The notes under the pieces were generated by a model. The model was given only the letters and a program-made list of their open reading frames with translations. It was not told the DNA's origin and made no database searches. Source: Bacteroidales bacterium (GTDB taxonomy: Bacteria > Bacteroidota > Bacteroidia > Bacteroidales > F082). From it: a stretch of 50,237 nt of DNA. Where the stretch lies: positions 1-50,237 of the forward strand of contig JAFYNK010000010.1 of the NCBI GenBank assembly GCA_017548125.1, in the 5' to 3' direction. The first letter of the stretch is position 1. The number at the start of each line of letters is the position of its first letter. Shown here piece by piece: positions 3,860 through 50,237 of this stretch. The position numbers and the translations under genes were made by a program.

Positions 3860-3890
3860 AGAACCTCAGAATTTTTTCTGGGGTTCTTTT
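3860..3890 (+). terminator. Intrinsic terminator
   Basis: A 12-bp stem, AGAACCTCAGAA (3860-3871) with TTCTGGGGTTCT (3876-3887; one G-U pair), a loop of four T, and a following T run. It lies 17 bp after the stop of the GLUG-like gene. Confidence 0.75.
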
Positions 3891-3930: not shown

Positions 3931-4032
3931 CTACGTGAGATTGTCTTAACAATTCCAATAGTATCACAAACTATCTTTACTAAAATTACGTGCAGATACG
4001 TGAGATACGCGGGTCAAACGATACAAGAATAA

Positions 4033-4096
4033 CTAAAAACGCATAAAAATGCATAATTTTTTCTCTTGACAAAAGCATTTCAATAGTGTATCTTTG
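4033..4096 (+). promoter_or_regulatory. Promoter, second copy of the shared box
   Basis: TTG at 4066-4068, 20 bp spacer, TATCTTTG at 4089-4096. Upstream is GCAT (4041-4044), AAAA, ATGC (4049-4052). The block from about 4033 to 4074 is almost identical to 2241-2283. The start codon of the following gene is 26 bp downstream of the -7 element. Confidence 0.7.
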
Positions 4097-4122
4097 AAAG
4101 CAAAATACAAAACCAGACCATT

Positions 4123-4728: not shown

Positions 4729-4732
4729 GGAT

Positions 4733-6544
4733 ATGAAAGACGCTTTGTTGTTCGCAATGCTTTTGATATGTGTCTTTTTTCATGCATGCAGAAAAGACCC
4801 TAAGCCTGAAGTCTTCAGAATAGCTGAAGTCGAGGCGGTGGCATCATCAGAGAGCGCAGAGATAAAGGGCTCCTATGTCTTCAGCAGCATTCCAGATGAA
4901 ATGAAGATATTATACGGAAAGAAAGACGATATATCTGACGCCGCAGCTTCTGAAGTTGAGGTGAATGGCGATGAGTTTAAGGTGATAATTGATAATCTTG
5001 AAAGTAAAGTCAACTATTATTACTGTTTCGAATGCGTAGCGTCGCACAGCTCCATAAGGACGCCGACAGAATCTTTCATGACGCTGGCCGGCAAGCCTAT
5101 AGTCGTGACTAACGACATATCCGACATAAGTACAGAGACAGCAAAAGGAGGCGGCTCCATAACCGATGACGGAGGAGCGGAGGTGACGGCACGAGGCATC
5201 TGCTGGAGCGTCAATCCGAATCCGACGACAGACGACTATCATACTACAGATGGCAGCGGGACAGGCGAGTTTGCAAGCGAGATGACAAAGCTGTATTCAA
5301 ACACAGAATATTATGTAAGAGCGTACGCCACCAATGAAGCGGGAACGGCTTACGGAGAGCAGAAGATCTTTACGACAGAAGTAGGACTGCCTACCGTCAT
5401 GACATTGGAAGTAAGTGCCATAATGGATTCCACGGCGAGATGCGGCGGCATCGTCACCAACAACGGAGGTTCGGAGATAACGGCAAGAGGAGTCTGCTGG
5501 GGAACGGTCAAGTTCCCGACGTTGAGTAGTCCGCATACAAACGACGGAACAGGAACTGGAGAGTTTGCAAGCGAGATGAGCGGAATGAGACCTAACACGG
5601 AATATTATGTGAGAGCTTACGCCACCAATGCAGCAGGCACGATATACGGCGACAACATCAAATTCACCACGATAGGTTTTCCAATGGTCAGCATCGTAGA
5701 TATATCAGATATAAGAAGGACTTCCGCTGCAGTTGTTGCATACGTCACTTATCATGGAGGGACAGACGTGACGGCACGAGGCATCTGCTGGAGCGTCAAT
5801 CCGAATCCGACGACTGATGACTATCATACTACAGACGGAAAAGGCACAGGAGAATTTTCAACAGAAATGACAGAGCTGATTCCCAATACCAAATATTATG
5901 TAAGGGCTTACGCTACCAATGAATTGGGAACGGCTTACGGAGATGAGGAAAGTATTATCACTGTGCCAGAAGAACAGGAACCTACAGGATATATCAACGG
6001 TTATCCATACGTAGATCTCGGACTGCCCTCAGGATTGAAATGGGCGATGCATGATGTAGGAGCTTCGTCTATCACTGATTTCGGAGATGCATACGCTTGG
6101 GGCGAGATAGAGACAAAATCATCATACACTCCAGAAAACTGCACCTCGTTCAGCATTACTGAAGATATATCAGGCGATCCCCGTTATGATGCTGCAAGAG
6201 CGAAATGGAGCAGCACATGGAGAATGCCTACAATTGATGAAGCGATAGAACTTGGTAAATATTGTGCATTTAGGTGGATAATATATGATGGGGCTATGTG
6301 CTTAATGGTTACCGGACCAAACGGTAATTATATTTTTTTACCTGCAAGAAATTATTACGAGATATTAGATGTACTTTATGCTACTTGCTGGACATCTACA
6401 CCTTCTATGACAACTTATTATGATCATCCCAAAGCATATTCAATATCATCACATAATTTTAATTTAAATAACGCACCGTACAGTAATTTTGATTCACTGC
6501 AAGATCGTTGGCGGGGCGGAAATATTCGTCCAGTGTCTGATTGA
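4733..6544 (+). CDS. FN3-like repeat lipoprotein with C-terminal FISUMP (C-type-lectin-like) domain
   Basis: 603 residues. The N-terminus is a lipoprotein signal (LLICVFFHACRKD; Cys about residue 19). A degenerate repeat at about 25-115 is followed by three clear repeats of about 97 residues (about 119-215, 216-312, 313-405). Each contains T-A-x-GG-x-x--GG-E-x-TARGICW, GTGEFASEM, and NTEYYVRAYATNxxGTAYG, a fibronectin-like module common in Bacteroidetes. From about 421 onward the pattern YVDLGLPSGLKWA...YAWGE...WRMPTIDEAIEL...VTGPNGNYIFLPA...CWTSTP...NIRPVSD matches the Fibrobacter-succinogenes-major-paralogous-domain type (FISUMP), a C-type-lectin/FGE-related fold also present in the lipoprotein at 47752-49296. 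Probably surface-exposed with a binding role. Base composition becomes clearly AT-richer from about 6240, in the last third of the FISUMP domain. Confidence 0.75.
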   Translation: MKDALLFAMLLICVFFHACRKDPKPEVFRIAEVEAVASSESAEIKGSYVFSSIPDEMKILYGKKDDISDAAASEVEVNGDEFKVIIDNLESKVNYYYCFECVASHSSIRTPTESFMTLAGKPIVVTNDISDISTETAKGGGSITDDGGAEVTARGICWSVNPNPTTDDYHTTDGSGTGEFASEMTKLYSNTEYYVRAYATNEAGTAYGEQKIFTTEVGLPTVMTLEVSAIMDSTARCGGIVTNNGGSEITARGVCWGTVKFPTLSSPHTNDGTGTGEFASEMSGMRPNTEYYVRAYATNAAGTIYGDNIKFTTIGFPMVSIVDISDIRRTSAAVVAYVTYHGGTDVTARGICWSVNPNPTTDDYHTTDGKGTGEFSTEMTELIPNTKYYVRAYATNELGTAYGDEESIITVPEEQEPTGYINGYPYVDLGLPSGLKWAMHDVGASSITDFGDAYAWGEIETKSSYTPENCTSFSITEDISGDPRYDAARAKWSSTWRMPTIDEAIELGKYCAFRWIIYDGAMCLMVTGPNGNYIFLPARNYYEILDVLYATCWTSTPSMTTYYDHPKAYSISSHNFNLNNAPYSNFDSLQDRWRGGNIRPVSD

Positions 6545-6594
6545 AAGATTCTGGTTTAAGGTTAACTGAACCACTAACTCCTAACATAAAAAAC

Positions 6595-6639
6595 TTTAGC
6601 CATTAGCCATTAGCCTTTCGCCATTTTTCACTATCTTTG
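6595..6639 (+). promoter_or_regulatory. -7 element preceded by a TTAGCCA word array
   Basis: TATCTTTG at 6632-6639 is a good -7 element 25 bp before the ATG at 6665. No canonical TTTG is found about 20 bp upstream. That position is occupied by the short tandem word TTAGCCATTAGCCATTAGCC (about 6597-6616). Confidence 0.5.
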
Positions 6640-6664
6640 CCACTTATTAATTAATAAATCTATT

Positions 6665-9640: not shown

Positions 9641-9666
9641 GGACTACAAGACTACAAGACTACAAG
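9641..9666. repeat. GACTACAA tandem word directly after a stop codon
   Basis: Three copies of the 8-bp word GACTACAA start two bases after the TAA of the subtilase gene. The complementary array TTGTAGTC occurs at 9773-9796, and the same word family touches the stop codons of korB, the LiaF-like gene and the kinase gene. Confidence 0.75.
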
Positions 9667-9670
9667 CATA

Positions 9671-9704
9671 GGGGCTGCTCATGGATAATGGGCAGTCCTT
9701 TTTT
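9671..9704 (+). terminator. Intrinsic terminator of the subtilase gene
   Basis: Nine-bp stem GGGCTGCTC (9672-9680) with GGGCAGTCC (9690-9698; two G-U pairs), loop ATGGATAAT, then six T. A short ORF read through this structure is not considered real. Confidence 0.75.
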
Positions 9705-9801
9705 GTACGAAGCAATGGATATATGAAAAGCACATTGCTCACAGCTCAAGGCAAAAAACCTCTAACTAAAATTTGTAGTCTTGTAGTCTTGTGGTCTTTC
9801 A

Positions 9802-9889
9802 TTTGGGCGTTCCGGCGAAGCCGTCGGGCTTTCCGCTATATCTTTGCTCGCTACGCTCGCAAAGGATGCCGCTCCAATCCCTAACGCAT
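9802..9889. repeat. GC-rich palindromic element nested in a GACTACAA word array
   Basis: An 88-bp block of much higher GC than its surroundings, with internal hairpins CGGC-GAA-GCCG (about 9813-9823) and CTTTGC...GCAAAG (about 9842-9864) and matching ends (GGCGTT near the left, AACGC near the right). It interrupts an array of the word CTTGTAGT, which is present on both sides (9773-9796 and 9892-9907). I recall similar GGGCTTTCCGCTAT and GGATGCCGCT phrases as dispersed elements in Bacteroidetes genomes but cannot verify this here. No protein-coding sense is seen; the rest of 9705-9948 is non-coding. Confidence 0.55.
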
Positions 9890-9895
9890 TGGAGT

Positions 9896-9948
9896 CTTGT
9901 AGTCTTATTCAATATCCCATGTGCTGCCGCTGTTCAATAAGTCATCAA
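9896..9948 (-). repeat. 53-bp direct repeat, copy 1: detached duplicate of the korB 3' end
   Basis: Identical at 51 of 53 positions to 11449-11501 (differences at the sixth base and at the A/G just before the final TCAA). Read on the minus strand it encodes the last 13 codons of korB (DDLLNSGSTWDIE) and its TAA, with no korB gene upstream of it. It starts three bases past the stop codon of the ATPase gene. Confidence 0.85.
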
Positions 9949-9951
9949 AAT

Positions 9952-11199
9952 TCAAATATCATTATTAAGCAAAAAGTCGTATATACTGATTATCTGGATA
10001 CCATTTTCATCACTCCACGATTTTGTATGCTCTCCCACTATTATCAACTTCCTAAATGAATCTCCTATCAATCTTAAAGAACGCTTTTCCTGCTCTATCT
10101 TTTCATCATCCGGCATACGCCATGCTGATTGTATATATACTCTTTCACTTCCTTTATTGCATACAAAATCAACCTCCAATGTCACTCTATGTTGTTGCCC
10201 TTCCGAATTTCTAATCCTATGATTGATATTTCCAACATCAACAAGCCAACCTCGCATCCTCATCTCGTTATATATTATATTTTCCATCAAATGGGTCAGT
10301 TCATGCTGTCTAAACGAAAGAACAGCATTCCTCAAACCTATATCTTGATAATAACATTTGTATAATGAACCTATATACTTACGTCCTTTTATATCATATC
10401 TTTCAGATTTCTCTATCAAAAAAGCATCTTGCATATACTCCATATATGTAGATATGGTTTTATCTGAAATGTTTTGAACTTTATTTACTGATTTAAAAGT
10501 ATTAGCAATATTCGACGTATTGATAGGTGCTCCTATACTTGATGATAATATTTTTGAAAGTTCCTCAAATTCTACTTTCAATTCTATGTTATTGCGTTCA
10601 TAAATATCACGAAGATATACTGTTCGATATAATCGACGTAAAAATTCAGACTTCTTCTCATCTCCATCTTGCGTCAATAACTGCGGCAATCCACCATACA
10701 TCATATATTCCGCCCACGCTTCTTCTTTTGAACCATCATATACCGACATAAATTCTGCAAACGACAGTGGCCATACATGAATTTCATCACCTCTTCCCCT
10801 AAATTCTGTCACTACATCTGATGATAAAAATCGTGAATTTGAACCTGTTACATATACATCCAAACCGTCTGTCACAGATAATGTTGAAAGCACCTCTATA
10901 AAGTCATCAACTTCTTGAACTTCATCAATAATTATATAATAAGTTAATTTATCTTGTATTTTGCCCTCTATCCAATCCAACATATAGTCTGGATTTTTAA
11001 AAGGCTTATTTTTTCTATTTTCCATATCAATTACTATAATATGGTCTTCTGAAACGCCTTCTTCTATCAAATTCTGATAAAATAGTTTCTTTAATAAGAA
11101 TGACTTGCCAGATCGACGCAATCCTGTGATTATCTTAATTAGCCCGTTACCTTTTGAACGTATAAGTTTTTCTATATATGCTTTTCTTTTAACAATCAT
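9952..11199 (-). CDS. Orphan AAA-type ATPase with DUF4143-like C-terminal domain
   Basis: 415 residues, the usual length for the family. N-terminal P-loop GLRRSGKS (about 27-34), Walker B YYIIIDEVQE (about 87-96), sensor-like VYVTGSN, then PLSFAEFMSVYDG and YGGLPQLL. A winged-helix-like middle and a C-terminal nuclease-like or DUF4143 part follow, with NIIYNEMRMRGWLVDVG...LEVDFVCNKGSERVYIQ. Such ATPases are very common in Bacteroidetes, often as solitary, laterally spread genes of unknown job. This copy is AT-rich compared with korAB and sits inside a 53-bp direct repeat, which supports acquisition. Start at 11199 is the only good ATG and gives a family-typical MIVKRK opening. Biochemical role not known. 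Confidence 0.85.
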   Translation of the reverse strand: MIVKRKAYIEKLIRSKGNGLIKIITGLRRSGKSFLLKKLFYQNLIEEGVSEDHIIVIDMENRKNKPFKNPDYMLDWIEGKIQDKLTYYIIIDEVQEVDDFIEVLSTLSVTDGLDVYVTGSNSRFLSSDVVTEFRGRGDEIHVWPLSFAEFMSVYDGSKEEAWAEYMMYGGLPQLLTQDGDEKKSEFLRRLYRTVYLRDIYERNNIELKVEFEELSKILSSSIGAPINTSNIANTFKSVNKVQNISDKTISTYMEYMQDAFLIEKSERYDIKGRKYIGSLYKCYYQDIGLRNAVLSFRQHELTHLMENIIYNEMRMRGWLVDVGNINHRIRNSEGQQHRVTLEVDFVCNKGSERVYIQSAWRMPDDEKIEQEKRSLRLIGDSFRKLIIVGEHTKSWSDENGIQIISIYDFLLNNDI

Positions 11200-11213
11200 A
11201 CTTTTCGAATTAA

Positions 11214-11247
11214 TGTCACATGTGACAGTTTTCAGAAGACAAAATTA
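11214..11247 (-). promoter_or_regulatory. -7 element and 14-bp palindrome upstream of the ATPase gene
   Basis: On the minus strand TAATTTTG (11240-11247) matches the -7 consensus; no convincing -33 was found. Between it and the ATG lies the perfect palindrome TGTCACATGTGACA (11214-11227), placed where a repressor would block transcription or where it would be part of the leader. Confidence 0.5.
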
Positions 11248-11390
11248 CATATTTTCAATTAAAATAATCACATAACTAATACTTTTTTTACAAATATTAT
11301 TATCAAAATTTCAAACATGTCTAGCCTATAAATTTATTCAATAATTATGAATTATTTAAAAAAAATCATACTCATTACCTTTTAACATTC

Positions 11391-11428
11391 AAAAAAAAAA
11401 TCCGCTACTTCTCAGTAACGGATTTTTT
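11391..11428 (-). terminator. Intrinsic terminator of korAB
   Basis: Minus-strand stem AATCCGTTAC with GTAGCGGATT (one G-U pair) and a short TGAGAA loop, followed by a run of T. It lies about 30 bp after the korB stop. The remaining 11248-11390 is AT-rich and empty. Confidence 0.75.
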
Positions 11429-11448
11429 ATTATAATACAACTTGTTGT

Positions 11449-11501
11449 CTTGTTGTCTTATTCAATATCCCATGTGCTGCCGCTGTTCAATAAGTCGTCA
11501 A
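11449..11501 (-). repeat. 53-bp direct repeat, copy 2: genuine korB 3' end
   Basis: Partner of 9896-9948 (51/53 identical). Here it is continuous with the rest of korB. It includes part of a GACAACAA word array (11441-11460) that begins at the stop codon. Confidence 0.85.
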
Positions 11502-19106: not shown

Positions 19107-19556
19107 TTAACTTCCAATTTCCTCGTTCGCCTTATCGATATTATATTTTATCTGATTCATCACATTATCCAAAGCCACCAAGTCTTCTTCTTTTATATTA
19201 TTCAAAACGTTTCTCATCATACTGATGGCGACTTCTGTGGTTCTCGATTTCAATTTCATTCCTTCTTCAGAAACAACAATGTTATTCACACGGCGGTCAG
19301 TTTTGTTGACCTGACGATAGACGAGGCCTTTTTTCTCCAATGAGTCGATGAATTTTGTCACCGAGTTTTTATCTTTCTGGATTATGTCGGCAATGGCTTG
19401 CTGCGACAAGACTTCTGCATCCCACAGAATATCCATCACAAGATATTGTTCAGGAGTTAGATTGATGTTATTACGACTGAGTTCTTTGGCAAAATATTTT
19501 ATCAAAGAACAATTAACGATGTTAATGTAAACTGCAATTTTTTTTATCAAAAGCAT
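19107..19556 (-). CDS. MarR-family transcriptional regulator
   Basis: 149 residues. Winged helix-turn-helix with LTPEQYLVMDILWDAEVLSQQAIADIIQKDKNSVTKFIDSLEKKGLVYRQVNKTDRRVNNIVVSEEG (in pieces), the classic MarR core including the DRR wing. Third gene of the operon, 4 bp after the SDR. A 16-bp palindrome AGTAAATATATTTACT lies exactly between the -33 and -7 elements of the operon promoter (21726-21741), so autorepression of the lipid operon is likely (inference). The identical site also precedes the SDR/VOC operon at 26.4 kb. Confidence 0.9.
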   Translation of the reverse strand: MLLIKKIAVYINIVNCSLIKYFAKELSRNNINLTPEQYLVMDILWDAEVLSQQAIADIIQKDKNSVTKFIDSLEKKGLVYRQVNKTDRRVNNIVVSEEGMKLKSRTTEVAISMMRNVLNNIKEEDLVALDNVMNQIKYNIDKANEEIGS

Positions 19557-19560: not shown

Positions 19561-20403
19561 TCATTTTTTTAGTGGACTATTCGGTTCGTTAGCCATCATT
19601 CTATATTCAACCTTATCTGTCACTCTTGGTATGTTTCTGCTTGCAAAAAGCGTCGCTTTTCCAAGCGGTGTCAGCACCATCTGAGTTCTTCTTCGTGCTA
19701 TTCCTCTAGCCAAAATTCGTGCCACTCTTTCCGCCGACATCATTTTTTCTTCATTACGCGGCGTCTCCCCTTGCGGACTGCCATCTGCTGTCAGCGCAAC
19801 ATTACGGATGTTTGACGCCGTGAATCCCGGAGCGAAGATCATGACATGCAATCCGTCATATAAATGTTCTATCCTCAAGGTCTCAAGAAAACCTCTCACC
19901 GCGAACTTGGATGCCGAGTATGCCGTTCGTGCAGGAAGTCCTACATATCCTGCTGTCGAAATCACTCCAACAACACTACCCTTACTTTCAAGAAGATACG
20001 GCAAAGCGTATTTTGTACAATATACAGTTCCCCAGAAATTGGTGTCCATCAGAGAATGCATCACCTTCAGATCCAAATCCTTGAAGACAGCGCGCATAGA
20101 GATACCAGCGTTATTGACAAGAACGTCAATCTTTCCGAAACGCTCGACAGTCTTCTCAATAAGATTCTTGCAATCTTCTTCTTTGGCAACGTCTGTCTTT
20201 ATGCACAAAAACCGTTGAGCTGTTGAGCCATGAGTCGAAAATTTTTGCTTCAATTCTGCGACTATATTTTCCAACTTATCGATAGAACGTGCGGCGAGAA
20301 TCACTTTAGCTCCTAATGCCGCAAAATTAGTGACAGAAGCCAACCCAATTCCTGAGCTGGCTCCTGTCACTATAATAACTTTGTCTTTATAGAAATTCGT
20401 CAT
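19561..20403 (-). CDS. Short-chain dehydrogenase/reductase, likely 3-keto-sphingoid or dehydrocapnine reductase
   Basis: 280 residues. NAD(P)-binding TGASSGIG (about 14-21), NNAG (about 97-100), catalytic Ser in ISTAGY and YSASK (Tyr about 162, Lys about 166). The C-terminal extension is basic (ARGIARRRTQMVLTPLGKATLFA). It starts 14 bp after the alpha-oxoamine synthase gene. That enzyme makes a 3-keto long-chain base, and an SDR is needed to reduce it, so this is the probable role (3-ketosphinganine or dehydrocapnine reductase). The family call is firm; the substrate is inferred from context only. Confidence 0.85.
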   Translation of the reverse strand: MTNFYKDKVIIVTGASSGIGLASVTNFAALGAKVILAARSIDKLENIVAELKQKFSTHGSTAQRFLCIKTDVAKEEDCKNLIEKTVERFGKIDVLVNNAGISMRAVFKDLDLKVMHSLMDTNFWGTVYCTKYALPYLLESKGSVVGVISTAGYVGLPARTAYSASKFAVRGFLETLRIEHLYDGLHVMIFAPGFTASNIRNVALTADGSPQGETPRNEEKMMSAERVARILARGIARRRTQMVLTPLGKATLFASRNIPRVTDKVEYRMMANEPNSPLKK

Positions 20404-20417: not shown

Positions 20418-21677
20418 TTACCAGATTGCCATATTCGGCATCTCGTCAGAGTCGTACTTACCTTCAGCAAGTTTTCTCTTGACATCGGCAAACGCACTTA
20501 ATGTGTAGTTGACATCTTCCAAAGTGTGAGCTGCTGTCGGGATTATTCTGAAGATAATCATACCTCTTGGAATAACCGGATATGTGACAATAGAACAGAA
20601 AATCTTGTAATTTGTTCTAAGGTCTTTTGCAATTTGTGCAGCTTGTTCTTCATTACCTGGCAAGAAGATAGGTGTCACACATGCTTCAGCTGGTCCGATT
20701 TCGAATCCTAAGTTACGGAAGCCGTCCTGCAAAGCGCGTGTAACAGTCCATAATTTCTTACGTAACTCATCGCCTTCTGCGCTTCTGATTATTTCAAGAC
20801 GTTTCAAGCAACCTTCAACAATAGGCATCGGCAATGACTTGGCATACATCTGTGAACGCATGTTATAGCGTAGATAATCAATAACATATTTAGGTCCAGC
20901 GACGAAACCGCCGATTGTTGCCATCGACTTAGCGTATGCTCCGATGTAAAGGTCTATTTCATCCATGACGCCGAAATGTTCTGAAGTGCCGCGACCTGTT
21001 GGTCCCATGACGCCAAAGCCGTGAGCGTCGTCGATGAGGATACGGAATTTATATTTCTTCTTTAACTCAACGATTTGATCTAAGATACCGAGAGCGCCTG
21101 TCATGCCGAAGACACCTTCAGTGATGAGCAAGATGCCTCCGCCTGTCTTCTCGACTATCTCTGTCGCACGTTTAAGAGCTTTTTCGCAGCTTTCAATATC
21201 ATTATGTTTGAAGTGGAATGATTGTCCGAGGTGGAGACGTTTACCGTCGATGAGACAAGCGTGAGCCTCTGAGTCGAAGACGATGACGTCGTGACGTGTT
21301 GTCAATGCGTCGATTGTAGAGACGATGCCTTGATAACCGAAGTTAAATTCGTAGGCAGCTTCTTTTCTTTCGAAGTCAGCGAGTTCTTGTTCAAGACGCT
21401 CGTGGAGACGAGTGTTGCCGCTCATCATACGAGCGCCCATAGGATACGCCATACCCCATTTTGCTGCTGCCTCAGCATCGACCTTCCTGATTTCTGGATG
21501 GTTAGCCAAACCGAGGTAGTTGTTCAAGCTCCAGTTCAAGACGTCAACGCCATTGAAACGCATGTGAGGTCCCAACTCACCTTCTAATCTTGGGAAAACA
21601 AAATAACCGTGTGCACGGTCTCTGTATTGACCAATAGGACCGCCTGAGTCCTTCGCTATTCTTTCAAAAATTTCCAT
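20418..21677 (-). CDS. Alpha-oxoamine synthase: serine palmitoyltransferase or cysteate fatty-acyltransferase
   Basis: 419 residues, PLP-dependent class II aminotransferase fold. Visible motifs: NNYLGLANHPE, GARMMSGNTRLHERLE, DSEAHACLIDG (PLP-stacking region), TEGVFGMTGALG, LIDDAHGFGVMGPTGRG and the PLP lysine in GAYAKSMATIGGF (about residue 244). It condenses an amino acid (serine for sphingolipids, cysteate for capnine-type sulfonolipids) with a fatty acyl thioester to give a 3-keto base in the cytoplasm. It differs from the classic Bacteroides Spt sequence as I remember it, so the sulfonolipid option should stay open. First gene of the operon with an SDR and a MarR regulator; promoter in the 76-bp repeat. 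Confidence 0.85.
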   Translation of the reverse strand: MEIFERIAKDSGGPIGQYRDRAHGYFVFPRLEGELGPHMRFNGVDVLNWSLNNYLGLANHPEIRKVDAEAAAKWGMAYPMGARMMSGNTRLHERLEQELADFERKEAAYEFNFGYQGIVSTIDALTTRHDVIVFDSEAHACLIDGKRLHLGQSFHFKHNDIESCEKALKRATEIVEKTGGGILLITEGVFGMTGALGILDQIVELKKKYKFRILIDDAHGFGVMGPTGRGTSEHFGVMDEIDLYIGAYAKSMATIGGFVAGPKYVIDYLRYNMRSQMYAKSLPMPIVEGCLKRLEIIRSAEGDELRKKLWTVTRALQDGFRNLGFEIGPAEACVTPIFLPGNEEQAAQIAKDLRTNYKIFCSIVTYPVIPRGMIIFRIIPTAAHTLEDVNYTLSAFADVKRKLAEGKYDSDEMPNMAIW

Positions 21678-21703: not shown

Positions 21704-21779
21704 CATTTTTTAGCTGTGCAAAAATAGTAAATATATTTACTTTACCAAATTGATTTAATAAAATATTTTATCATTTTTA
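21704..21779 (-). repeat. 76-bp direct repeat, copy A, carrying the lipid-operon promoter and operator
   Basis: Base-for-base identical to 26375-26450. On the minus strand it contains TTTG (21746-21749), a 19-bp spacer and TATTTTTG (21719-21726), a textbook promoter for the oxoamine synthase gene 42 bp downstream. The spacer contains the perfect palindrome AGTAAATATATTTACT (21726-21741), a likely MarR operator. Confidence 0.9.
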
Positions 21780-21876
21780 AATTTTTAAAACATCAACGTA
21801 GATTTATCTACAAATTACTTTTTTATTCAACACTTATTTTTCAAAAAAAATTCATTCCCATTCAATTATTTTTTCG

Positions 21877-21884
21877 TATTTTTG
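21877..21884 (+). promoter_or_regulatory. -7 element of the glycan cassette
   Basis: TATTTTTG at 21877-21884, 31 bp before ATG 21916. A canonical -33 element is not obvious. Confidence 0.4.
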
Positions 21885-21915
21885 TTGTAAATTTATTCAT
21901 TACAGACAAATTAAA

Positions 21916-22668
21916 ATGATAAACAATAAGATAATTACAGTTGTCATGCCAGCATACAATGCTGAACTCACATTATTCCAAACACTTAAAGAAGTTCCAA
22001 CTGATATAGTTGATCACATTATTTTAGTTGATGATAACAGTTCTGACAAGACAGTTGAAAAAGCACATCAACTTGGCATCGAGTATATCATCAAACACGA
22101 AGAAAACAAAGGATACGGTGGCAATCAAAAAACATGTTACGACAAAGCCTTGGAAATAGGGTCTGATATTGTAATAATGCTTCATCCCGATTACCAATAC
22201 ACTCCCAAATTAATTCACTCTATGGCATATCTCATTGCCAATGACGTTTACAAAGTAGTTTTCGGATCAAGAATCTTAGGCAAAGGTGCTTTAAAAAACG
22301 GAATGCCGCTATATAAGTATGTATCTAACAGATTTTTAACTATGTTTCAGAATTTGTTAATGAATCAAAAGTTATCCGAATACCATACTGGTTATAGAGC
22401 TTTTTCGTCAGAAGTACTAAAAAATACAAACTATCATTTATGTTCTGACGACTTTATATTTGACAACCAAATGATAGCACAGATATTCAACCAAAATTAC
22501 GAAATAGCTGAAATAACATGCCCTACAAAATATTTCCCAGAGGCCTCTTCAATTAATTTTCAAAGAAGTCTTAAATATGGATTTGGTTGTCTTAAAGTTT
22601 CAATCATGTATTTTCTAAACAAAATCGGAATTTTAAAATACCGCATATTAAAAAATAGAACTAGATAA
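21916..22668 (+). CDS. Family 2 glycosyltransferase (dolichyl/polyprenyl-phosphate sugar synthase-like)
   Basis: 250 residues. GT-A fold with VVMPAYNAELTL (about 9-20), ILVDDNSSDKT (nucleotide-binding aspartates), NKGYGGNQKTCYDKAL, IVIMLHPDYQYTP (metal-binding region, HPD in place of a strict DxD) and GSRILGKGALKNGMP. This is the pattern of DPM-type enzymes, which load a sugar onto a polyprenyl phosphate. No C-terminal membrane domain. The ArnT/PMT-like transferase at 24754-26301 could use that lipid-linked sugar, so the two probably form one glycosylation route (inference). First gene of the cassette; its TAA overlaps the ATG of the next gene by one base. Confidence 0.88.
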   Translation: MINNKIITVVMPAYNAELTLFQTLKEVPTDIVDHIILVDDNSSDKTVEKAHQLGIEYIIKHEENKGYGGNQKTCYDKALEIGSDIVIMLHPDYQYTPKLIHSMAYLIANDVYKVVFGSRILGKGALKNGMPLYKYVSNRFLTMFQNLLMNQKLSEYHTGYRAFSSEVLKNTNYHLCSDDFIFDNQMIAQIFNQNYEIAEITCPTKYFPEASSINFQRSLKYGFGCLKVSIMYFLNKIGILKYRILKNRTR

Positions 22669-23723
22669 TGATGAAAATAATTTCAATATCAGTACTATCT
22701 TTACTATTAACTTGTTTTATTTCATCCATATATTGTCAAATTCCTCCTAATTTGGATAACAATTGGAAATTAAATACAAAAAAAAGCGATGAATTCAACG
22801 ACACCATATTAGATGATTCCAAGTGGGATGTTCTTGATATTTCAAATGGTATAGGATATAGCTGGGGAGGAGCTGAATATTTCAGGCCTGAAAATGTTGC
22901 TGTTGACAATAATATTTTACAATTAATAGTTGAACGTAAGCCAAACAACCACAACAAATATTATTCAGGCGGAGTTAGATCTGTCAATCACAATTTTTCC
23001 TATGGATACTTTGAAATATATGCAAAATTACCAGGATTCTATAATAATGGAATACCATGCGGAGATGGTTTTTGGCCTGCATTTTGGACATATTACGTTG
23101 AAGAAGATGAAGATGGATGCCGAATCATACATGATGAAATCGATATATTAGAACCATCTGGAAGACAATATGCTAATGCAAAATCCAATGTCGCAGGTTG
23201 GCATGATGAACACCCAGATTGTGAAATCGATCATATAAAAGTATGTGAAGCACAGTATAACCACAACCAACCGCTATTTAAAGATTATCATAAATATGCA
23301 GTTGAATGGTTACCTGATAGAATTATATTTTATTTTGACGATCAACCTTTCTATGCTCAATACAATCATCCAAAGATGATCATGAAACCTCAGTATGTAG
23401 TAATAGACCAACAAATGGACAAGACATACAATGTAAATTCCAACACACCATTTCCACAATATATGTTAATAGACTATTTTAGATACTATGAATTAAACAC
23501 TTCATTCTGCGAACAAACTTTATCAATAACAAGCAATTCACAATTAAATAAGCATTTGCCAGGAGTACGTAAAAATATAATTATTGGAGATGGCACTAAT
23601 TCATTATATTTATCTAACAATCAAAGCATAACATTAAGAGCAACGAATGAAATAACAATAAATGGAGATTTTATTGTTCCTATTGGATGTGAATTAAATT
23701 TAATACCAACACCTTGTTATTAA
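22668..23723 (+). CDS. Secreted family 16 glycoside hydrolase
   Basis: 351 residues with signal peptide (MMKIISISVLSLLLTCFISSIYC). The GH16 fold is recognisable from SDEFNDTILDDSKWDV, SGGVRSVNHNFSYGYFEIYAKLP, GFWPAFWTYY and the catalytic signature HDEIDILEPSG (ExDxxE; nucleophile and acid/base glutamates about residues 158 and 163). KYAVEWLPDRIIFYFDD is also typical. Family members cut beta-1,3/1,4-glucans, agar, carrageenan or xyloglucan; the exact target cannot be read here. The last about 65 residues (NSQLNKHLPGVRKNIIIGDGTN...) lie outside the catalytic domain and look like the beta-rich appendage seen on T9SS-era surface proteins, without a standard sorting tail. Translationally coupled to the upstream transferase. 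Confidence 0.88.
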   Translation: MMKIISISVLSLLLTCFISSIYCQIPPNLDNNWKLNTKKSDEFNDTILDDSKWDVLDISNGIGYSWGGAEYFRPENVAVDNNILQLIVERKPNNHNKYYSGGVRSVNHNFSYGYFEIYAKLPGFYNNGIPCGDGFWPAFWTYYVEEDEDGCRIIHDEIDILEPSGRQYANAKSNVAGWHDEHPDCEIDHIKVCEAQYNHNQPLFKDYHKYAVEWLPDRIIFYFDDQPFYAQYNHPKMIMKPQYVVIDQQMDKTYNVNSNTPFPQYMLIDYFRYYELNTSFCEQTLSITSNSQLNKHLPGVRKNIIIGDGTNSLYLSNNQSITLRATNEITINGDFIVPIGCELNLIPTPCY

Positions 23724-23737
23724 CAAAAATCAATAAA

Positions 23738-24751
23738 ATGAAAGTACATATAAGAATATCAACATTATTAGCCTTCATCTTAGGAGTATCTATAAATTTA
23801 AATGCACAGCTTAAAGTAGAAAGTAATGGAAACGTAAGAATAGGAACAAATGAGCCATATCCTAAAGGTGGAAAACTACAAATAACAGGGATAAATGAAA
23901 CACTTGAAGCAAGAATTTTTGTAAGTTCAAATAATACAGCTCGATTGTGGACAGCTAATTCAACGAATGCTGTAGGGTTTGGAATCGATGAAAATGCTGT
24001 CGGACATATATATCGAAATATAAACTCACCAATCTCAATCATGACCTTTAATAATAATGGTTATATTGGGATTGGCAAAAATCCTTCATATACTTTAGAT
24101 GTTAATGGAAGCATAAATGCAAATATCGTAATATTTTCATCAAACGAATCTCTAAGATTTAATACAAAACCTATTGATAATATATCAGATAATTTATATA
24201 ATTTAAACAGCATATCGTATAAGTTACATAATTCTGATAATATTTCGATTAAAAACAATGAAAACTTTCATTATGGTTTCATAGCACAAGAAGTACAAAA
24301 CATCTTCCCAGAATTAGTGTATGAAGATAACAACGGAATTCTTGGAATAGATTACATATCATTTATACCTTTATTAATCAATGAATTAAAACAACAACAA
24401 ACAAATATTGAAAATTTAAGAAATGAAATAAACATATTAAAATCAGCACTAATAAAACAGTCCGTTAACAAAAGCGAAGATAATAATTTAGCTGAAATAT
24501 TATATCAAAACTACCCTAACCCATTTAACCAAGCGACTACAATCAATTTAAATTTACCATTAAACATCACCTCTGCAACACTACATATATATGATTTATA
24601 CGGCAACCCTACTAAAACATACACCATCGAAGAACGTGGATTTACAACTATTACTATTGATGCAAATGAACTAAATACAGGCATCTACATATACTCATTA
24701 ATTGCAGATCAAAAAATAATTGACACCAAAGTTTTTATAATAACTGAATAG
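23738..24751 (+). CDS. Secreted protein with S74-type tail-fibre chaperone domain and T9SS sorting domain
   Basis: 337 residues from ATG 23738, preferred to an ATG at 23714 because it starts the signal peptide MKVHIRISTLLAFILGVSINLNAQ and does not overlap the previous gene. N-terminal beta-helix-like repeats (ESNGNVRIGTNEPYPKGGKL, GIGKNPSYTLDVNGSINAN) lead to a Peptidase_S74/intramolecular-chaperone-like region (LNSISYKL...HYGFIAQEVQNIFPELVYEDNNGILGIDYISFIPLLINELKQ, in pieces) and a coiled coil. A T9SS type A domain (YQNYPNPFNQATTINLNLP...TGIYIYSLIADQKIIDTKVFII) ends it. A trimeric surface fibre is plausible. This S74 plus T9SS architecture is known in Bacteroidetes. Third gene of the cassette. 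Confidence 0.85.
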   Translation: MKVHIRISTLLAFILGVSINLNAQLKVESNGNVRIGTNEPYPKGGKLQITGINETLEARIFVSSNNTARLWTANSTNAVGFGIDENAVGHIYRNINSPISIMTFNNNGYIGIGKNPSYTLDVNGSINANIVIFSSNESLRFNTKPIDNISDNLYNLNSISYKLHNSDNISIKNNENFHYGFIAQEVQNIFPELVYEDNNGILGIDYISFIPLLINELKQQQTNIENLRNEINILKSALIKQSVNKSEDNNLAEILYQNYPNPFNQATTINLNLPLNITSATLHIYDLYGNPTKTYTIEERGFTTITIDANELNTGIYIYSLIADQKIIDTKVFIITE

Positions 24752-24753
24752 CC

Positions 24754-26301
24754 ATGAATATTATATACTCATGTTTCTCTGACACTCAAAACGTTTTACT
24801 ACTCACAGGAGGTTTTTCTTTTATAATCAGTTTGTTAATGCACATCAAAAGCAGAGAATATCTATCATTGGCATTCCTTGTTTTAACTGCAATTTGCATA
24901 TTTAGTTTCGCAGCATTGTTGGATCCATTTTTAAATTTATGGGACGAGCGTTTTCATGCACTTGCTGCCAAGAATATGATGAACCATCCACTAATGCCAA
25001 CTTTATACGACGATCCTATCGTTGATATGCCTTACGATAGATGGGACAGATACCATATTTGGCTGCACAAACAGCCTCTGTTTTTATGGCAGATTGCTAT
25101 TTGCTTCAAAATATTCGGTGTATCTGAATTCAGTCTAAGATTACCTGACATCGTACTTGGAACAATATTAGTTGTAATAACATATCGCTCAGGTAAATTA
25201 TTGGCAAATAAAAATGTAGCATATATATCTTCATTATTTGTCATTTCTACAATATATATATTAGAACTAATTGCTGGCAGACAAGAACTTGAACACAATG
25301 ACTTTACTTTTTTAGTTTATATTTCACTAAGCATCTGGTCTTTTATTGAATATTACTACAGTAAGAAAACAATTTGGATTTATTTAATTGGATTATTTTC
25401 CGGAATGGCTATTTTATGCAAATGGCTGGTAGGATTGCTCGTATATTTTGGATGGGGATTCATGAGGATTTTACAAAAAAATATAAAAATATCTAAAAAC
25501 ACAGATCTTATCATTTCATTGTCAATCACATTATTAGTTGCCTTGCCTTGGCAAATATTAACATTTGTATGGTATCCTGAAGAAGCTGCTTGTGCATACC
25601 GTTTCAATTCCATACACTTCACAACTCCTTTAGAAGGACACGGAGGTAATTTCTGGTATCATTTCAACATGTTTAATACAATTTATGGCAAAATTGCATC
25701 ATTCTTAATAATTCCAGGATTCATTGCTTTATATAAAAAAAACAAAGACAAAATATTACTTAACTCATTATTGAGCATGGTAATTGTTGTATATCTTTTC
25801 TTCTCATTAGCCGCAACAAAAATGCCATCATTTACAATCGTAACAGCAATGATCATTTTTATTGCTTTTGCTACACTATTTGATTCTATCATAGAGCACA
25901 TCAATAAATTATTTATAAAAAGATATATCAAATCTTTAATTTTCGGATTGTTTACTATCACAATTGCTATATTCAACTTTGACATTACTTTCTTAAAAGA
26001 AAAACACACAAATAATACTTACACTAGTAATCTATTAAACAACAAACATGTATTCAAATCATTAGAACTGCCGTCCAACACTGTTTTATTTAATGTAAAA
26101 GGACGTCACTATATAGAAGCAATGTTTTACACAAATCTCCCTTCTTATAATTTTATACCTTCTCTTGAACAATATCAAGACATTAAAAGTAAAGGAAAAA
26201 CAATTGCCTTATTTAAAAAAAACAATGAAAAAATTCCTGATTATTTAACAGATGACACATCTGTGATTATCATAGATAAGGAGATAAAAGGATACGAATA
26301 A
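24754..26301 (+). CDS. ArnT/PMT-like (GT39/GT83-type) membrane glycosyltransferase
   Basis: 515 residues with about 10-11 hydrophobic helices. The first periplasmic loop has the signature LNLWDERFHALAAKNMMNHP...YDRWDRYHIWLHKQPLFLWQIAICFKIFGVSEFSLRLPDI (in pieces), where the D-E pair and HKQPL are characteristic of lipid-linked-sugar transferases of the ArnT/PMT class. The long C-terminal soluble part (from about 425) faces the periplasm. It would move a sugar from a polyprenyl carrier onto lipid or protein, and fits with the DPM-like enzyme at the start of the cassette. It starts 2 bp after the previous stop and is the last gene before the second 76-bp repeat. Confidence 0.85.
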   Translation: MNIIYSCFSDTQNVLLLTGGFSFIISLLMHIKSREYLSLAFLVLTAICIFSFAALLDPFLNLWDERFHALAAKNMMNHPLMPTLYDDPIVDMPYDRWDRYHIWLHKQPLFLWQIAICFKIFGVSEFSLRLPDIVLGTILVVITYRSGKLLANKNVAYISSLFVISTIYILELIAGRQELEHNDFTFLVYISLSIWSFIEYYYSKKTIWIYLIGLFSGMAILCKWLVGLLVYFGWGFMRILQKNIKISKNTDLIISLSITLLVALPWQILTFVWYPEEAACAYRFNSIHFTTPLEGHGGNFWYHFNMFNTIYGKIASFLIIPGFIALYKKNKDKILLNSLLSMVIVVYLFFSLAATKMPSFTIVTAMIIFIAFATLFDSIIEHINKLFIKRYIKSLIFGLFTITIAIFNFDITFLKEKHTNNTYTSNLLNNKHVFKSLELPSNTVLFNVKGRHYIEAMFYTNLPSYNFIPSLEQYQDIKSKGKTIALFKKNNEKIPDYLTDDTSVIIIDKEIKGYE

Positions 26302-26374
26302 TTAAAAGTATTTTCAACTATAAAATCATAAATCACTGAAAATCAATTTATAGAAAAAACTTTGAAAAAACATC

Positions 26375-26450
26375 CATTTTTTAGCTGTGCAAAAATAGTA
26401 AATATATTTACTTTACCAAATTGATTTAATAAAATATTTTATCATTTTTA
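26375..26450. repeat. 76-bp direct repeat, copy B
   Basis: Identical to 21704-21779. It keeps the leftward TTTG-N19-TATTTTTG promoter (26417-26420 and 26390-26397) and the palindrome AGTAAATATATTTACT (26397-26412). Here the leftward promoter would run antisense into the cassette, while the right edge abuts the promoter region of the SDR/VOC operon. Confidence 0.9.
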
Positions 26451-26472: not shown

Positions 26473-26564
26473 TATTTTTGTGCCTCGAACTAAAGAAAAC
26501 AACAAGCGATATGATCAAAAGACTGTTGTCAGTTGACTGCCGTACGTTGTCCTTAAAACAATGA
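26473..26564 (+). promoter_or_regulatory. -7 element and overlapping leader ORF before the SDR/VOC operon
   Basis: TATTTTTG at 26473-26480 is a -7 match. An ATG at 26511 opens a 17-codon frame whose TGA (26562-26564) overlaps the SDR start at 26561 as ATGA, suggesting translational coupling or a leader peptide. Confidence 0.4.
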
Positions 26565-27358
26565 CTATGATAAACTTAAAAGACAAATACGCACTTGTAA
26601 CAGGAGCGAGTTCCGGGATTGGCGCTGCCATTGCCAAACAGCTCGCCAAAGAAGGATGTAACTTATTCCTGACAGGGCAAAACAAAGAACGACTAGAAGA
26701 GACCAAAAAATCATGTGAAGCTAAGGGCGTTAGAGTCTTCTCCAAAGAAAGCAATTTTGAGGAATATTCAAGCATAGACGTTTTTGTTCAATTTGTCAAA
26801 TCACATAACATAAATATCGACCTTTTTGTTTTAAACGCCGGCATTTCTCAAAGAGCAAAAGCATTTGAAACAGACTTCGCTACCGACCAGAAGATAATGC
26901 AAGTAAATTACTGGAGTTCTGTATATCTCATCAAGCAGTTTAAAGACGAGATTCTCAACTCAAAACATACTAGCATTTCTGTCACCACCTCGCTCGCAGG
27001 TTTATTCGGTTTCCCATTAAGAACATCATATTGTTCATCAAAACACGCCTTGCTCGGCTTCTTCGAGTCAATGGATTTGGAATACGACAACGTCAGCGTC
27101 ACTTTCCTTATTCCTGGAAGAATCAACACCAACATCAGCAAGAGCGCTCTTCTTGGCGACGGACAACGTTATGAAAAGATGGACCCAGGCCAAGCCAAAG
27201 GCCTCGACGTTGACAAAGCAGCGAAACGTGCTGTCGAGGCTATCAAGAAAAAGAAACACAGAAAACTCATTGGAAAATACGAATTGTTAATGGCATATAT
27301 TAATAGGTATCTTCCAAGTCTTTATTACATACTCTCAAAACATATTTCTCCAACTTAA
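26561..27358 (+). CDS. Short-chain dehydrogenase/reductase
   Basis: 265 residues; start at 26561 or two codons later at 26567. TGASSGIG cofactor motif (about 14-21), NAG (about 92-94), catalytic Ser in VTTSLAG and YCSSK (Tyr about 156, Lys about 160), followed by LLGFFESMDLEY. Classical SDR of the KDSR-like branch with a hydrophobic, basic C-terminus (YINRYLPSLYYILSK) that may touch the membrane. It shares the 76-bp operator-containing repeat with the oxoamine synthase operon, so both probably belong to one lipid pathway (inference). The VOC gene starts 12 bp downstream. Confidence 0.85.
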   Translation: MTMINLKDKYALVTGASSGIGAAIAKQLAKEGCNLFLTGQNKERLEETKKSCEAKGVRVFSKESNFEEYSSIDVFVQFVKSHNINIDLFVLNAGISQRAKAFETDFATDQKIMQVNYWSSVYLIKQFKDEILNSKHTSISVTTSLAGLFGFPLRTSYCSSKHALLGFFESMDLEYDNVSVTFLIPGRINTNISKSALLGDGQRYEKMDPGQAKGLDVDKAAKRAVEAIKKKKHRKLIGKYELLMAYINRYLPSLYYILSKHISPT

Positions 27359-27369: not shown

Positions 27370-28446
27370 ATGAAAGAAAAAGTAATATGCGGTATTCAAC
27401 AAGTCGGCATCGGCGTTGAAGAATTATTGGCACCATGGAAATGGTATAACAAGGTGATGGGCTTCGAGATGAAGATCTTCGACGACGAAGGCGTCGCGGA
27501 ACGCATGCTTCCTTACACTGGAGGCAAGCCACAGCCAAGACGCGCGGTCTTAGCGTTCAACCCTCGCGGCGGCGGCGGTTTCGAAGTTTGGCAGCCTAAA
27601 GGCAGAAAAGTAAAATATCCGGAACGTCAGCTCATGCTCGGCGACTACGGCATCAACATCTGCAAATTAAAAGCGAAAGATGTTGAGAAATCATACGCTC
27701 ATCTTAAAGAAAACGGAGCGACAATGCTCAGCGAAGTGTGCTCCTCTCCTTTCGGATTCAAGCATTTCTATTTCAAAGACCCATGGAATAATATCTTCGA
27801 GGTGGAGCAAAACGACTACGCCTTCATCGATGACAACAAAATAACAAACGGCGGCGTCAACGGAGTTTGCATCGGCGTGAAAGACATGGAGAAATCTATC
27901 GAGTTCTACGGCAAGTTATTGGATTACGACACAATAGTCGGTGACGTAACAGGCACTTTCGATGATATACAAAACATCAACGGCGGCAAAGACAAATTCC
28001 GTCGCGTTATGCTGAAACGCTCCAAACCGATACAAGGACCGCTTTCTGATATGATGGGAGATTCTCATATCGAATTGATTCAAAATTTAAGTTCCGAGCC
28101 TGTAAAAGTTTTAGAAAACAGATATTGGGGCGACCCTGGCTACATCCACTTATGCTTCGACGTTCGTAACATGGAATGCATCAAAGAAGCTGCTGAGGCA
28201 TTAGGACATCCTTTCGTCTGTGATGGAGGCCGCGACTTCGACATGGGCGACGCCAACGGACACTTCACCTACGTGGAAGATCCTAACGGCACTTTGATAG
28301 AATTCGTCGAGACATTCAAGGTTCCTGTCATGAAGAAATTCGGCATTTATCTCAACCTCGAAAACAGAGACGACTATAAACCATTACCTAAATTCATGAC
28401 CAAAGCGATGAGATTTAGCAAGATTAAAGCGGAGAAGATAAAATAA
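27370..28446 (+). CDS. Two-module VOC (glyoxalase/dioxygenase superfamily) protein
   Basis: 358 residues. Two vicinal-oxygen-chelate modules: about 5-150 (QQVGIGVEELLAPWKWYNKVMGF ... FYFKDPWNNIFEVEQ) and about 158-310 (NGVCIGVKDMEKSIEFYGKLLDY ... GYIHLCFDVRNM ... YVEDPNGTLIEFVE). The second module keeps the usual His and Glu metal ligands. The first has Gln in place of the first His, so only one metal site may be complete. A basic tail follows. Members include epimerases, glyoxalases and extradiol-type dioxygenases; no specific reaction can be named. It is co-transcribed with the SDR next to sphingoid/sulfonolipid genes, which suggests it modifies a lipid or its precursor. Confidence 0.8.
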   Translation: MKEKVICGIQQVGIGVEELLAPWKWYNKVMGFEMKIFDDEGVAERMLPYTGGKPQPRRAVLAFNPRGGGGFEVWQPKGRKVKYPERQLMLGDYGINICKLKAKDVEKSYAHLKENGATMLSEVCSSPFGFKHFYFKDPWNNIFEVEQNDYAFIDDNKITNGGVNGVCIGVKDMEKSIEFYGKLLDYDTIVGDVTGTFDDIQNINGGKDKFRRVMLKRSKPIQGPLSDMMGDSHIELIQNLSSEPVKVLENRYWGDPGYIHLCFDVRNMECIKEAAEALGHPFVCDGGRDFDMGDANGHFTYVEDPNGTLIEFVETFKVPVMKKFGIYLNLENRDDYKPLPKFMTKAMRFSKIKAEKIK

Positions 28447-50230: not shown

Positions 50231-50237
50231 CATGCAA

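What the first reader, a model, noticed from the sequence alone, without database searches (positions are those of the whole stretch)
21704..26450. Four-gene glycan cassette between two identical 76-bp copies of a lipid-operon promoter
21704-21779 and 26375-26450 are identical over all 76 bases. Copy A is the promoter/operator of the oxoamine synthase-SDR-MarR operon. Copy B sits at the start region of the SDR-VOC operon. Between them are 4595 bp of much AT-richer DNA encoding a DPM-like GT2, a GH16 hydrolase, an S74/T9SS fibre protein and an ArnT-like transferase. Removing the segment and one repeat restores a simple divergent pair of lipid operons. A 76-bp identical repeat is too long for a transposase target duplication, and no recombinase is present. 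It looks like a Campbell-type integration of a circle, or a cargo system that copies its target.
Basis: partly seen in the sequence, partly recalled or inferred. Interest (0 to 1): 0.85.

Follow-up and report, generated by a model that had tools for sequence, protein, structure and literature searches.

The report
Foreign gene cassette between copied promoters
A Bacteroidales bacterium has gained four foreign sugar-handling genes in the middle of a lipid-gene switch, and the switch is present on both sides so that neither neighbour lost it; related bacteria examined lack the insert, and some other small insertions in the same genome look alike.

Summary
The 76-bp repeats are exact, occur only twice in the 2.73-Mb genome, and enclose a complete four-gene operon (GT2, GH16, S74/T9SS, ArnT-like). 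The repeat is the promoter/operator of a SulA-type (sulfonolipid) operon. The nine nearest congeners have one copy and no cassette there; 83 of 86 genus genomes with both flanking genes on one contig have only 98-376 bp between them. So this is an insertion with target duplication. An assembly join is unlikely (k-mer apparently 141). No recombinase was recognised in 35 window ORFs. Identity of 76/76 does not prove youth, because the segment is constrained in sisters.

It may not be alone: an AAA/DUF4143 gene in the same window lies between 42-bp copies of the korB 3' end (single in 14 of 14 congeners), and 4 of 12 isolated repeats in 1.07 Mb enclose unusually AT-rich DNA; the other eight do not clearly. 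Best explanation: recombinase-free single-crossover integration of circularised DNA through short homology, known from the laboratory. Duplicative repair is the main rival. A dedicated target-copying process is not excluded, but unlikely.

The parts
19107..19556 (-). MarR-family regulator, last gene of the SulA-type operon
   Evidence: PF01047 E 1.6e-14
19561..20403 (-). SDR oxidoreductase (candidate 3-ketocapnine reductase; role inferred)
   Evidence: PF00106 E 1.3e-53
20418..21677 (-). alpha-oxoamine synthase of the SulA / cysteate acyltransferase kind
   Evidence: PDB 7u7h E 3.1e-172 and 28eh 'Cysteate-C-fatty acyltransferase' E 3.1e-167; serine palmitoyltransferases 1.3e-62; 7U7H is SulA of Alistipes finegoldii (PMC9304779, passages)
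21704..21779 (-). repeat copy A: promoter/operator of the SulA operon
   Evidence: identical to copy B; promoter TTTG-N19-TATTTTTG at 21719-21749 minus strand; palindromes AGTAAATATATTTACT and ATAAAATATTTTAT
21780..21915 (+). left inner end of the insert, lead of the cassette operon, no significant similarity to the native flank of copy B
21916..22668 (+). GT2 glycosyltransferase, polyprenyl-phosphate sugar synthase-like
   Evidence: PF00535; 81% identical relative in congener G044
22668..23723 (+). GH16 glycoside hydrolase with EIDILE motif; start overlaps GT2 stop
   Evidence: PF00722 E 2.6e-17; motif; overlap
23738..24751 (+). S74 chaperone-domain protein with T9SS sorting tail
   Evidence: PF13884, PF18962
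24754..26301 (+). ArnT-like GT-C transferase (PMT_2)
   Evidence: PF13231 E 1.4e-16; 70% identical to congener G044
26304..26356 (-). remnant of a ~200-bp MITE-like repeat, one end only, directly after the ArnT stop codon
   Evidence: best match 80% over 70 bp, E 5.2e-10, to a multicopy family in this genome; family found at E 1e-8 in 10 of 99 genus genomes, 8 of them G000 and its nearest sisters
26375..26450 (-). repeat copy B: second copy of the SulA promoter/operator, pointing into the 3' end of the cassette
   Evidence: promoter 26390-26420 minus strand
26561..27358 (+). SDR oxidoreductase of the divergent operon (native flank)
   Evidence: PF00106; on one contig with the SulA-like gene in 86 genus genomes, 98-376 bp apart in 83
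27370..28446 (+). VOC/glyoxalase-like protein (native flank)
   Evidence: PF00903
9902..9943 (-). second case in the window: distal copy of the korB 3' end (42 bp)
   Evidence: identical to 11455-11496
9952..11199 (-). second case: AT-rich insert gene, AAA_14/DUF4143 ATPase, candidate defence family PDC-S01
   Evidence: PF13173, PF13635; PADLOC PDC-S01 E 2.1e-114
11455..11496 (-). second case: 42-bp repeat over the korB end (last 12 codons, stop and 3 bases)
   Evidence: no second copy in 14 of 14 congener korB loci

Best explanation
A foreign operon was added to the chromosome by homologous single crossover, without any recombinase of its own. A non-replicating DNA molecule that carried the cassette next to a copy of the SulA promoter segment (from a relative in which cassette and promoter were already neighbours) became circular and recombined once, by the host's RecA, with the resident promoter. 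A single crossover between a circle and a chromosome leaves the whole circle between two copies of the shared segment, here 76 bp. Because the shared segment is the promoter/operator block between two divergent operons, both operons kept a copy, so the insertion was tolerated. The same kind of event, with other short host segments, may have placed other AT-rich accessory genes in this genome. Shown: exact duplication, empty sites in relatives, no recognised recombinase, a second case with empty sites. Inferred: the circle, RecA, the donor, the tolerance argument, and the extension to other loci.
For: Empty sites: the nine nearest congeners hold one repeat between the same two genes; 83 of 86 genus genomes with both genes on one contig have 98-376 bp there. 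Native flanks match on both outer sides and not on the inner sides. Gene order is compatible with a ring: G000 has GT2-GH16-S74-ArnT, G044 has [S74 C-terminus]-ArnT-GT2 (S74 remnant score 92, maximum of 200 shuffles 51). Second case in the window (42 bp of korB; 14 of 14 congeners without a second copy). In the sample, 4 of 12 isolated repeats enclose DNA of unusually low GC (random-interval p 0, 0, 0.007, 0.020, 400 draws each). At C65, C80 and C26 the two copies continue beyond the exact part as similar but not identical DNA on one or both sides (88-97% in aligned bases), as expected if one copy came from a donor. Precedent: in E. coli receiving a linearised non-replicative plasmid, 56 of 60 Lac-minus clones gave the PCR product diagnostic of a duplication of the homologous locus, 109-950 bp in the 14 sequenced; the authors favour trimming, re-circularisation and single crossover, which they found recA-dependent (PMC3240628, section 12 read, other passages seen).
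Against: A circle must already carry the 76-bp promoter, and no genome seen here has cassette and promoter together except this one; the donor is hypothetical. 76 bp is shorter than the duplications in the E. coli work. The ring order rests on two genomes, and two other loci have GT2 directly before an ArnT-like gene (L192, L197). The two cases with checked empty sites show no diverged continuation of the copies; of the five loci that do, C5 and C25 enclose no AT-rich DNA and C80 may be a gene paralogue. Eight of the 12 isolated repeats are not significant in the GC test, which was made after the pattern was seen. The korB case is not a plain duplication: the gene copy keeps a native-looking terminator behind it.
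Confidence: 0.45

Rival explanations
1. Duplicative capture during repair: a break with offset nicks that was filled in, or a fork that switched to the cassette DNA and returned 76 bp upstream, joined foreign DNA and copied the target once more. No homology, circle or donor promoter is needed.
For: Explains the origin of both copies in one event and arbitrary duplication lengths (76, 42, 68, 53 bp); the inner ends share no significant sequence (8-bp match reached by 77 of 1000 shuffles); the native flanks are undamaged; neither of the two checked cases has diverged copies.
Against: Does not explain similar but diverged continuation at C65, C80 and C26 nor the permuted gene order in G044. That the right end of the duplicated block falls where the block conserved in the sisters ends would be luck or selection.
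Confidence: 0.25
2. A remnant of a site-specific element (CIME-like): the repeats are attL and attR of an integrase that acted in trans or was lost.
For: Exact direct repeats that keep the target functional are typical of such elements (recalled); the korB 3' end duplication resembles a gene-end attachment site.
Against: No integrase recognised in 35 window ORFs; the repeat occurs nowhere else in the genome; none of the 85 other genus genomes with both genes on one contig has an integrase element at this site (83 have 98-376 bp, two a different operon); different inserts lie between unrelated repeats of different length.
Confidence: 0.12
3. Two steps: the promoter block was first duplicated in tandem, giving each divergent operon its own operator, and the cassette later landed between the copies.
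For: Congener G090 has two operator-like sites 98 bp apart at this place, so operator duplication can occur here; strong constraint would keep both copies alike.
Against: None of the nine nearest relatives has a tandem copy there; two independent events are needed; both copies point the same way.
Confidence: 0.12
4. Assembly artefact joining two molecules at a shared 76-bp sequence.
For: The genome is a draft in 97 contigs; no reads were seen.
Against: Nine pairs of contig ends share exactly 140-141 bp (six others 73-80 bp), which suggests a final k-mer of 141; then every k-mer spanning the repeat also holds 65 bp of flank. Outer flanks match native sequence.
Confidence: 0.04

Closest known systems
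Single-crossover integration of trimmed, re-circularised DNA (E. coli; PMC3240628)
   Same: Insert without recombinase, flanked by a direct duplication of the homologous target; in principle reversible by recombination between the copies.
   Different: There an engineered plasmid and sequenced duplications of 109-950 bp; here a natural cassette and 76 bp (42-68 bp at other loci); target is a promoter or gene end; mechanism inferred only.
CIMEs / IMEs (elements flanked by att sites)
   Same: Cargo between direct repeats that preserve the target's function, no integrase inside.
   Different: No integrase element found at this site in the genomes examined, unrelated repeats at other inserts. Class known to me from recall and a search listing.
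Homology-facilitated illegitimate recombination
   Same: Foreign DNA joined with help of short homology on one side.
   Different: Predicted to delete recipient DNA (PMC3240628, section 12); here the target is duplicated.
Sulfonolipid (capnine) biosynthesis, SulA
   Same: The flanking synthase matches SulA 7U7H over residues 2-412; congeners G089 and G090 carry a cysteate-synthase-like gene in the adjoining operon.
   Different: This genome has no cysteate-synthase match at E 1e-80 (3 of 99 genus genomes do); no metabolite evidence.

Membership tests
Insertion by single crossover (Campbell-type) at a homologous segment | Insert flanked by two copies of the shared segment, in direct orientation | tested here: met
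   76 of 76, direct
Insertion by single crossover (Campbell-type) at a homologous segment | Single copy of the segment at the uninserted site | tested here: met
   nine nearest congeners
Insertion by single crossover (Campbell-type) at a homologous segment | Gene order of the insert is a circular permutation of the donor's | tested here: inconclusive
   G044 order fits; L192 and L197 have GT2 before ArnT; no donor known
Insertion by single crossover (Campbell-type) at a homologous segment | Circular or excised form, RecA dependence | not testable with these tools
   no reads, no strain
CIME / site-specific integrative element | Related element with integrase at the same attachment site | tested here: not met
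   85 other genus genomes with both flanking genes on one contig, none
CIME / site-specific integrative element | Recombinase gene nearby | tested here: not met
   Pfam on 35 window ORFs, none recognised
Transposon / IS insertion | Short target duplication and terminal inverted repeats of the insert | tested here: not met
   76-bp duplication; no inverted repeat of 20 bp or more at the insert ends
Sulfonolipid locus (flank) | SulA/CFAT-type synthase | tested here: met
   7u7h E 3.1e-172, 28eh E 3.1e-167; by sequence only
Sulfonolipid locus (flank) | Production of sulfonolipid | not testable with these tools
   no culture or mass spectrometry

The most novel reading that the evidence does not exclude
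In this clade of Bacteroidales a cellular process inserts AT-rich accessory cassettes (sugar genes, toxin-antitoxin-like and candidate defence genes) into gene ends and promoters while making a second copy of some 40-76 bp of the target, so that the neighbours stay functional: a general, recombinase-free route of gene gain with long, target-preserving duplications.
Probability: 0.15. Interest if true: 0.85.

Novelty: new variant of a known kind. Interest (0 to 1): 0.55.

Why it matters
How single accessory genes and small operons enter bacterial chromosomes when no transposase or integrase is in sight is an open question, above all for candidate defence genes. This locus gives a clean case: empty sites in relatives, sharp ends, a target whose control block is kept on both sides. 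If the pattern holds in other genomes, long direct repeats of host sequence become a searchable footprint of recombinase-free gene gain, and one that also predicts easy loss, since recombination between the copies would restore the empty site without a scar. It also warns that identity of flanking repeats does not date an insertion when the repeat is a constrained promoter.

Tried and rejected
Rejected or without result: (1) 'One element hitting the site repeatedly': two other congeners (G089, G090) also have about 4.2 kb between the genes, but it is a different, co-oriented operon (porin-like, YeiH-like, small protein, cysteate-synthase-like) running straight into SDR2, with only short imperfect repeats. 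(2) A short target duplication around the promoter in the circle (shared AAAACATC): 77 of 1000 shuffles reach it. (3) Older, longer duplication whose flanks decayed: right flanks of A and B show no homology while sister right flanks still align to B; on the left the MITE remnant may hide a short extension, so 76 bp is exact on the right and a minimum on the left. (4) Cassette on viruses or plasmids: no relative of GT2 or ArnT among the candidates in viral contigs (a search for close relatives only); ArnT in 1 of 72,556 plasmid records at 32%; GT2 in 149 plasmid records, best 59%, none higher; GH16 in 6 phage records, partial, 23-24%. S74 was not searched in viruses. (5) Rfam at gathering scores: nothing in the window. 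(6) Empty sites of the other repeat-flanked inserts in sister stretches: C94 mapped to G051 only as part of a 12-kb island, C80 gave one 799-bp match outside the repeat, C65, C96, C90, C26, C5 and C25 none; so they stay unchecked. (7) The same repeat scan on 43 stretches of other genus genomes (724,759 bp, two of them overlapping) gave one CRISPR array, three groups of paralogue-like repeats (L287, L313, L318) and three isolated repeats (L310 simple; L311 31 bp, GC 0.39/0.35/0.47; L316 42 bp, 0.38/0.32/0.40), not tested against random intervals: weak support at most outside this genome. (8) Literature: listings showed no description of this signature; most subscription journals are outside that library, so this is weak. 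Papers opened: PMC3240628 (section 12 and passages), PMC9304779 and PMC11211663 (passages only). Error corrected: the window record was mis-picked (535 bases counted as C39); redone.
Full report
What was checked. The two 76-bp copies (21704-21779, 26375-26450) are exact and direct and have no third place in the 2.73-Mb, 97-contig genome. Outside them the copies share nothing: right flanks score 18 (348 of 1000 shuffles reach it), left flanks 10 (908 of 1000).

What the repeat is. On the minus strand both copies hold TTTG-N19-TATTTTTG, a full match to the Bacteroidetes promoter consensus (consensus recalled). The pattern TTTG-N18-21-TANNTTTG occurs 6 times in the window, 1.6 expected, 2 of 100 shuffles reach 6. 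A perfect 16-bp palindrome lies between the two boxes and a 14-bp palindrome upstream. In the genus the 18-bp operator pattern with up to one mismatch is found in 55 of 99 genomes; in this genome only at the two copies. Copy A therefore drives the operon oxoamine synthase-SDR-MarR. That synthase is of the SulA type: 7u7h E 3.1e-172 and 'Cysteate-C-fatty acyltransferase' 28eh E 3.1e-167, against 1.3e-62 for serine palmitoyltransferases; 7U7H is the sulfonolipid enzyme SulA (PMC9304779, passages). Copy B points into the 3' end of the cassette and lies just upstream of the SDR-VOC operon. That the MarR protein binds the palindrome is inferred.

Empty sites. A family search (173 genomes) found SDR2 at E 1e-40 in 114, and the repeat at E 0.001 in 56, mostly as short weak matches. 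The nine nearest congeners (G051-G054, G059, G065, G066, G076, G078) have one repeat exactly between the two divergent genes; three of them (G051, G052, G054) have a further match of 25-38 bp elsewhere. In the three nearest, the flanks align with the left flank of copy A and the right flank of copy B. Combining: 94 genus genomes with SDR2, 92 with the synthase, 86 with both on one contig; 83 of these 86 have 98-376 bp between them, two (G089, G090) an unrelated operon, and G000 the cassette. Four had the genes on different contigs. Four lacked a synthase match at the threshold; one of these, G078, has a contig-end fragment of it in place with one repeat.

Assembly. Nine pairs of contig ends, most of them in the MITE-like repeat, share exactly 140-141 bp, six other pairs 73-80 bp. 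I read this as a final k-mer of 141, longer than the repeat; no reads were seen.

The cassette. Four genes in one tight operon: stop and start overlap between GT2 and GH16, 14 bp to S74, 2 bp to ArnT. GH16 keeps an EIDILE motif. Genome-wide the genes are moderately AT-rich. In the family GT2 is in 14, GH16 in 5, ArnT in 17 and S74 in 20 of 173 genomes at the thresholds used. In the nine sisters GT2 and ArnT gave no match; G065 has distant GH16 (31%) and S74 (35%) relatives side by side. Of 80 ArnT loci kept from 109 in species genomes, 3 have this GT2 (30% or more) in the locus (L143, L192, L197). ArnT is therefore mostly met without it, and the cassette looks like a local assembly, probably acting on a surface or protein glycan: GT2 makes a polyprenyl-phosphate sugar, the ArnT-like enzyme transfers it, the S74/T9SS protein is displayed, GH16 trims (inferred from families).

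Age. In the three nearest sisters SDR2 is 85.7-86.0% identical at the DNA level, while the repeat segment matches at 71 of 72, 74 of 74 (with a gap) and 73 of 75 aligned positions. So identity of A and B is what constraint alone would give over most of the segment; only the first ~14 bases, which vary among the sisters, argue for an event after the split. Scarless loss in all sisters cannot be excluded, but one gain is simpler. Directly after the ArnT stop lies one end of a MITE-like repeat, 80% identical to its best match in a multicopy family of this clade (found in 10 of 99 genus genomes), whose copies here are mostly 88-99% like the one at the window's end. Either the insertion is old enough for a MITE to have landed and decayed, or the cassette came from within the clade with it.

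Is it alone? Reading 1,074,358 bp of the genome, one search lists exact direct repeats of 30 bp or more spaced 600-6000 bp; after dropping rows tagged as clustered (paralogues, CRISPR) or MITE, 12 isolated ones remain. For 4 of 12 the enclosed DNA is lower in GC than both flanks to a degree that random intervals rarely reach (p 0, 0, 0.007, 0.020; 400 draws each): this cassette; the AAA_14/DUF4143 gene between 42-bp korB ends; DUF3990/DUF3791 between 68-bp copies with a terminator-like hairpin (C65); DUF4160/DUF2442 (the latter below Pfam's cut-off) between 53-bp copies that end promoter-like (C96). Two more are borderline (C90, YhcG/DUF1016, 31 bp, p 0.052; C80, PDDEXK_4 genes, 33 bp, p 0.065) and six show nothing. 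PADLOC candidate labels: PDC-S01 (AAA), PDC-M13 (DUF3990), PDC-S02 (DUF1016), PDC-S26 (PDDEXK_4); none for DUF2442 and for the C26 protein; DUF4160 and DUF3791 were not scanned there. The test was made after seeing the pattern. In other genomes' stretches (724,759 bp) only three isolated repeats appeared, two of them with somewhat lower GC inside, untested. For korB the empty state was checked: of 20 congener stretches 14 contain korB, and 14 of 14 have no second copy downstream (best 20-23 of 42, against 42 of 42 in G000); no AAA gene at 40% identity or more in the 20. For the other loci it could not be checked. At C65, C80, C26, and at the unremarkable C5 and C25, the copies continue as similar but not identical DNA; at this cassette and at korB they do not. 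At C80 this may simply be a gene paralogue.

Mechanism. Three facts need explaining: exact duplication of a host segment, no recognised recombinase, and, if the other cases are of one kind, different segments at different loci. Single crossover of a circle gives all three, and there is a laboratory precedent: E. coli receiving linearised plasmid gave 56 of 60 Lac-minus clones with the PCR sign of a target duplication, 109-950 bp in 14 sequenced, ascribed to re-circularisation and single crossover (PMC3240628). Ring-like gene order against G044 supports it weakly. Its weak point is the donor: the circle must carry the promoter. Repair with target copying needs no donor but does not explain diverged copies. 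A survivorship argument joins both: between two divergent promoters, only an insertion that duplicates the whole control block leaves both operons controlled.

Verdict. A real, well-supported insertion with a long target-preserving duplication, of a kind known in principle, with hints that it recurs in this genome. Interest is moderate to good; the bold reading, a process that copies its target, stays open at low probability.

Noticed in passing
window 9902-11496: AT-rich AAA_14/DUF4143 gene (PDC-S01) between two exact 42-bp copies of the korB 3' end; no second copy in 14 of 14 congener korB loci.
   Followed up: yes
L279 (G000:C65) 9092-10210: DUF3791/DUF3990 pair between 68-bp exact repeats that hold a terminator-like hairpin; right flanks continue as similar DNA.
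   Followed up: partly
L275 (G000:C96) 684-1396: DUF4160/DUF2442 pair between 53-bp exact repeats that end in a promoter-like TATATTTG; the pair could use the copied promoter.
   Followed up: partly
L139 (G000:C80) about 1620-11390: CRISPR arrays with Cas12a-type repeat ends (label recalled; no cas gene looked for) in two places 8.7 kb apart with a duplicated leader.
   Followed up: no
window 50098-50237 and many contig ends of G000: Multicopy ~200-bp MITE-like repeat with inverted ends that breaks the assembly; found in 10 of 99 genus genomes.
   Followed up: partly
L121 2045-5976 and L120 2084-6087 (G090, G089): At the same intergenic site, an operon porin-like, YeiH-like, small protein, cysteate-synthase-like running into SDR2; G090 has two operator-like sites 98 bp apart.
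   Followed up: partly
L097 (G044:C20) 235-7640: CRISPR array with Cas1, Cas2, Card1-like genes and a BT4734-like N-domain protein beside the ArnT-GT2 pair.
   Followed up: no
G065:C25 20086-22434, G099:C338 8407-11043, G075:C6 23899-24789: Distant GH16 and S74/T9SS relatives lie together in three congeners, so the GH16-S74 pairing recurs without GT2 and ArnT.
   Followed up: no
window 2250-2284 and 4041-4075: 35-bp exact repeat upstream of two consecutive genes, the first a T9SS secreted protein; looks like a shared leader rather than an insertion.
   Followed up: no
L253 (G000:C9) 1-2190: Tandem ~1-kb near-identical units at a contig end.
   Followed up: no
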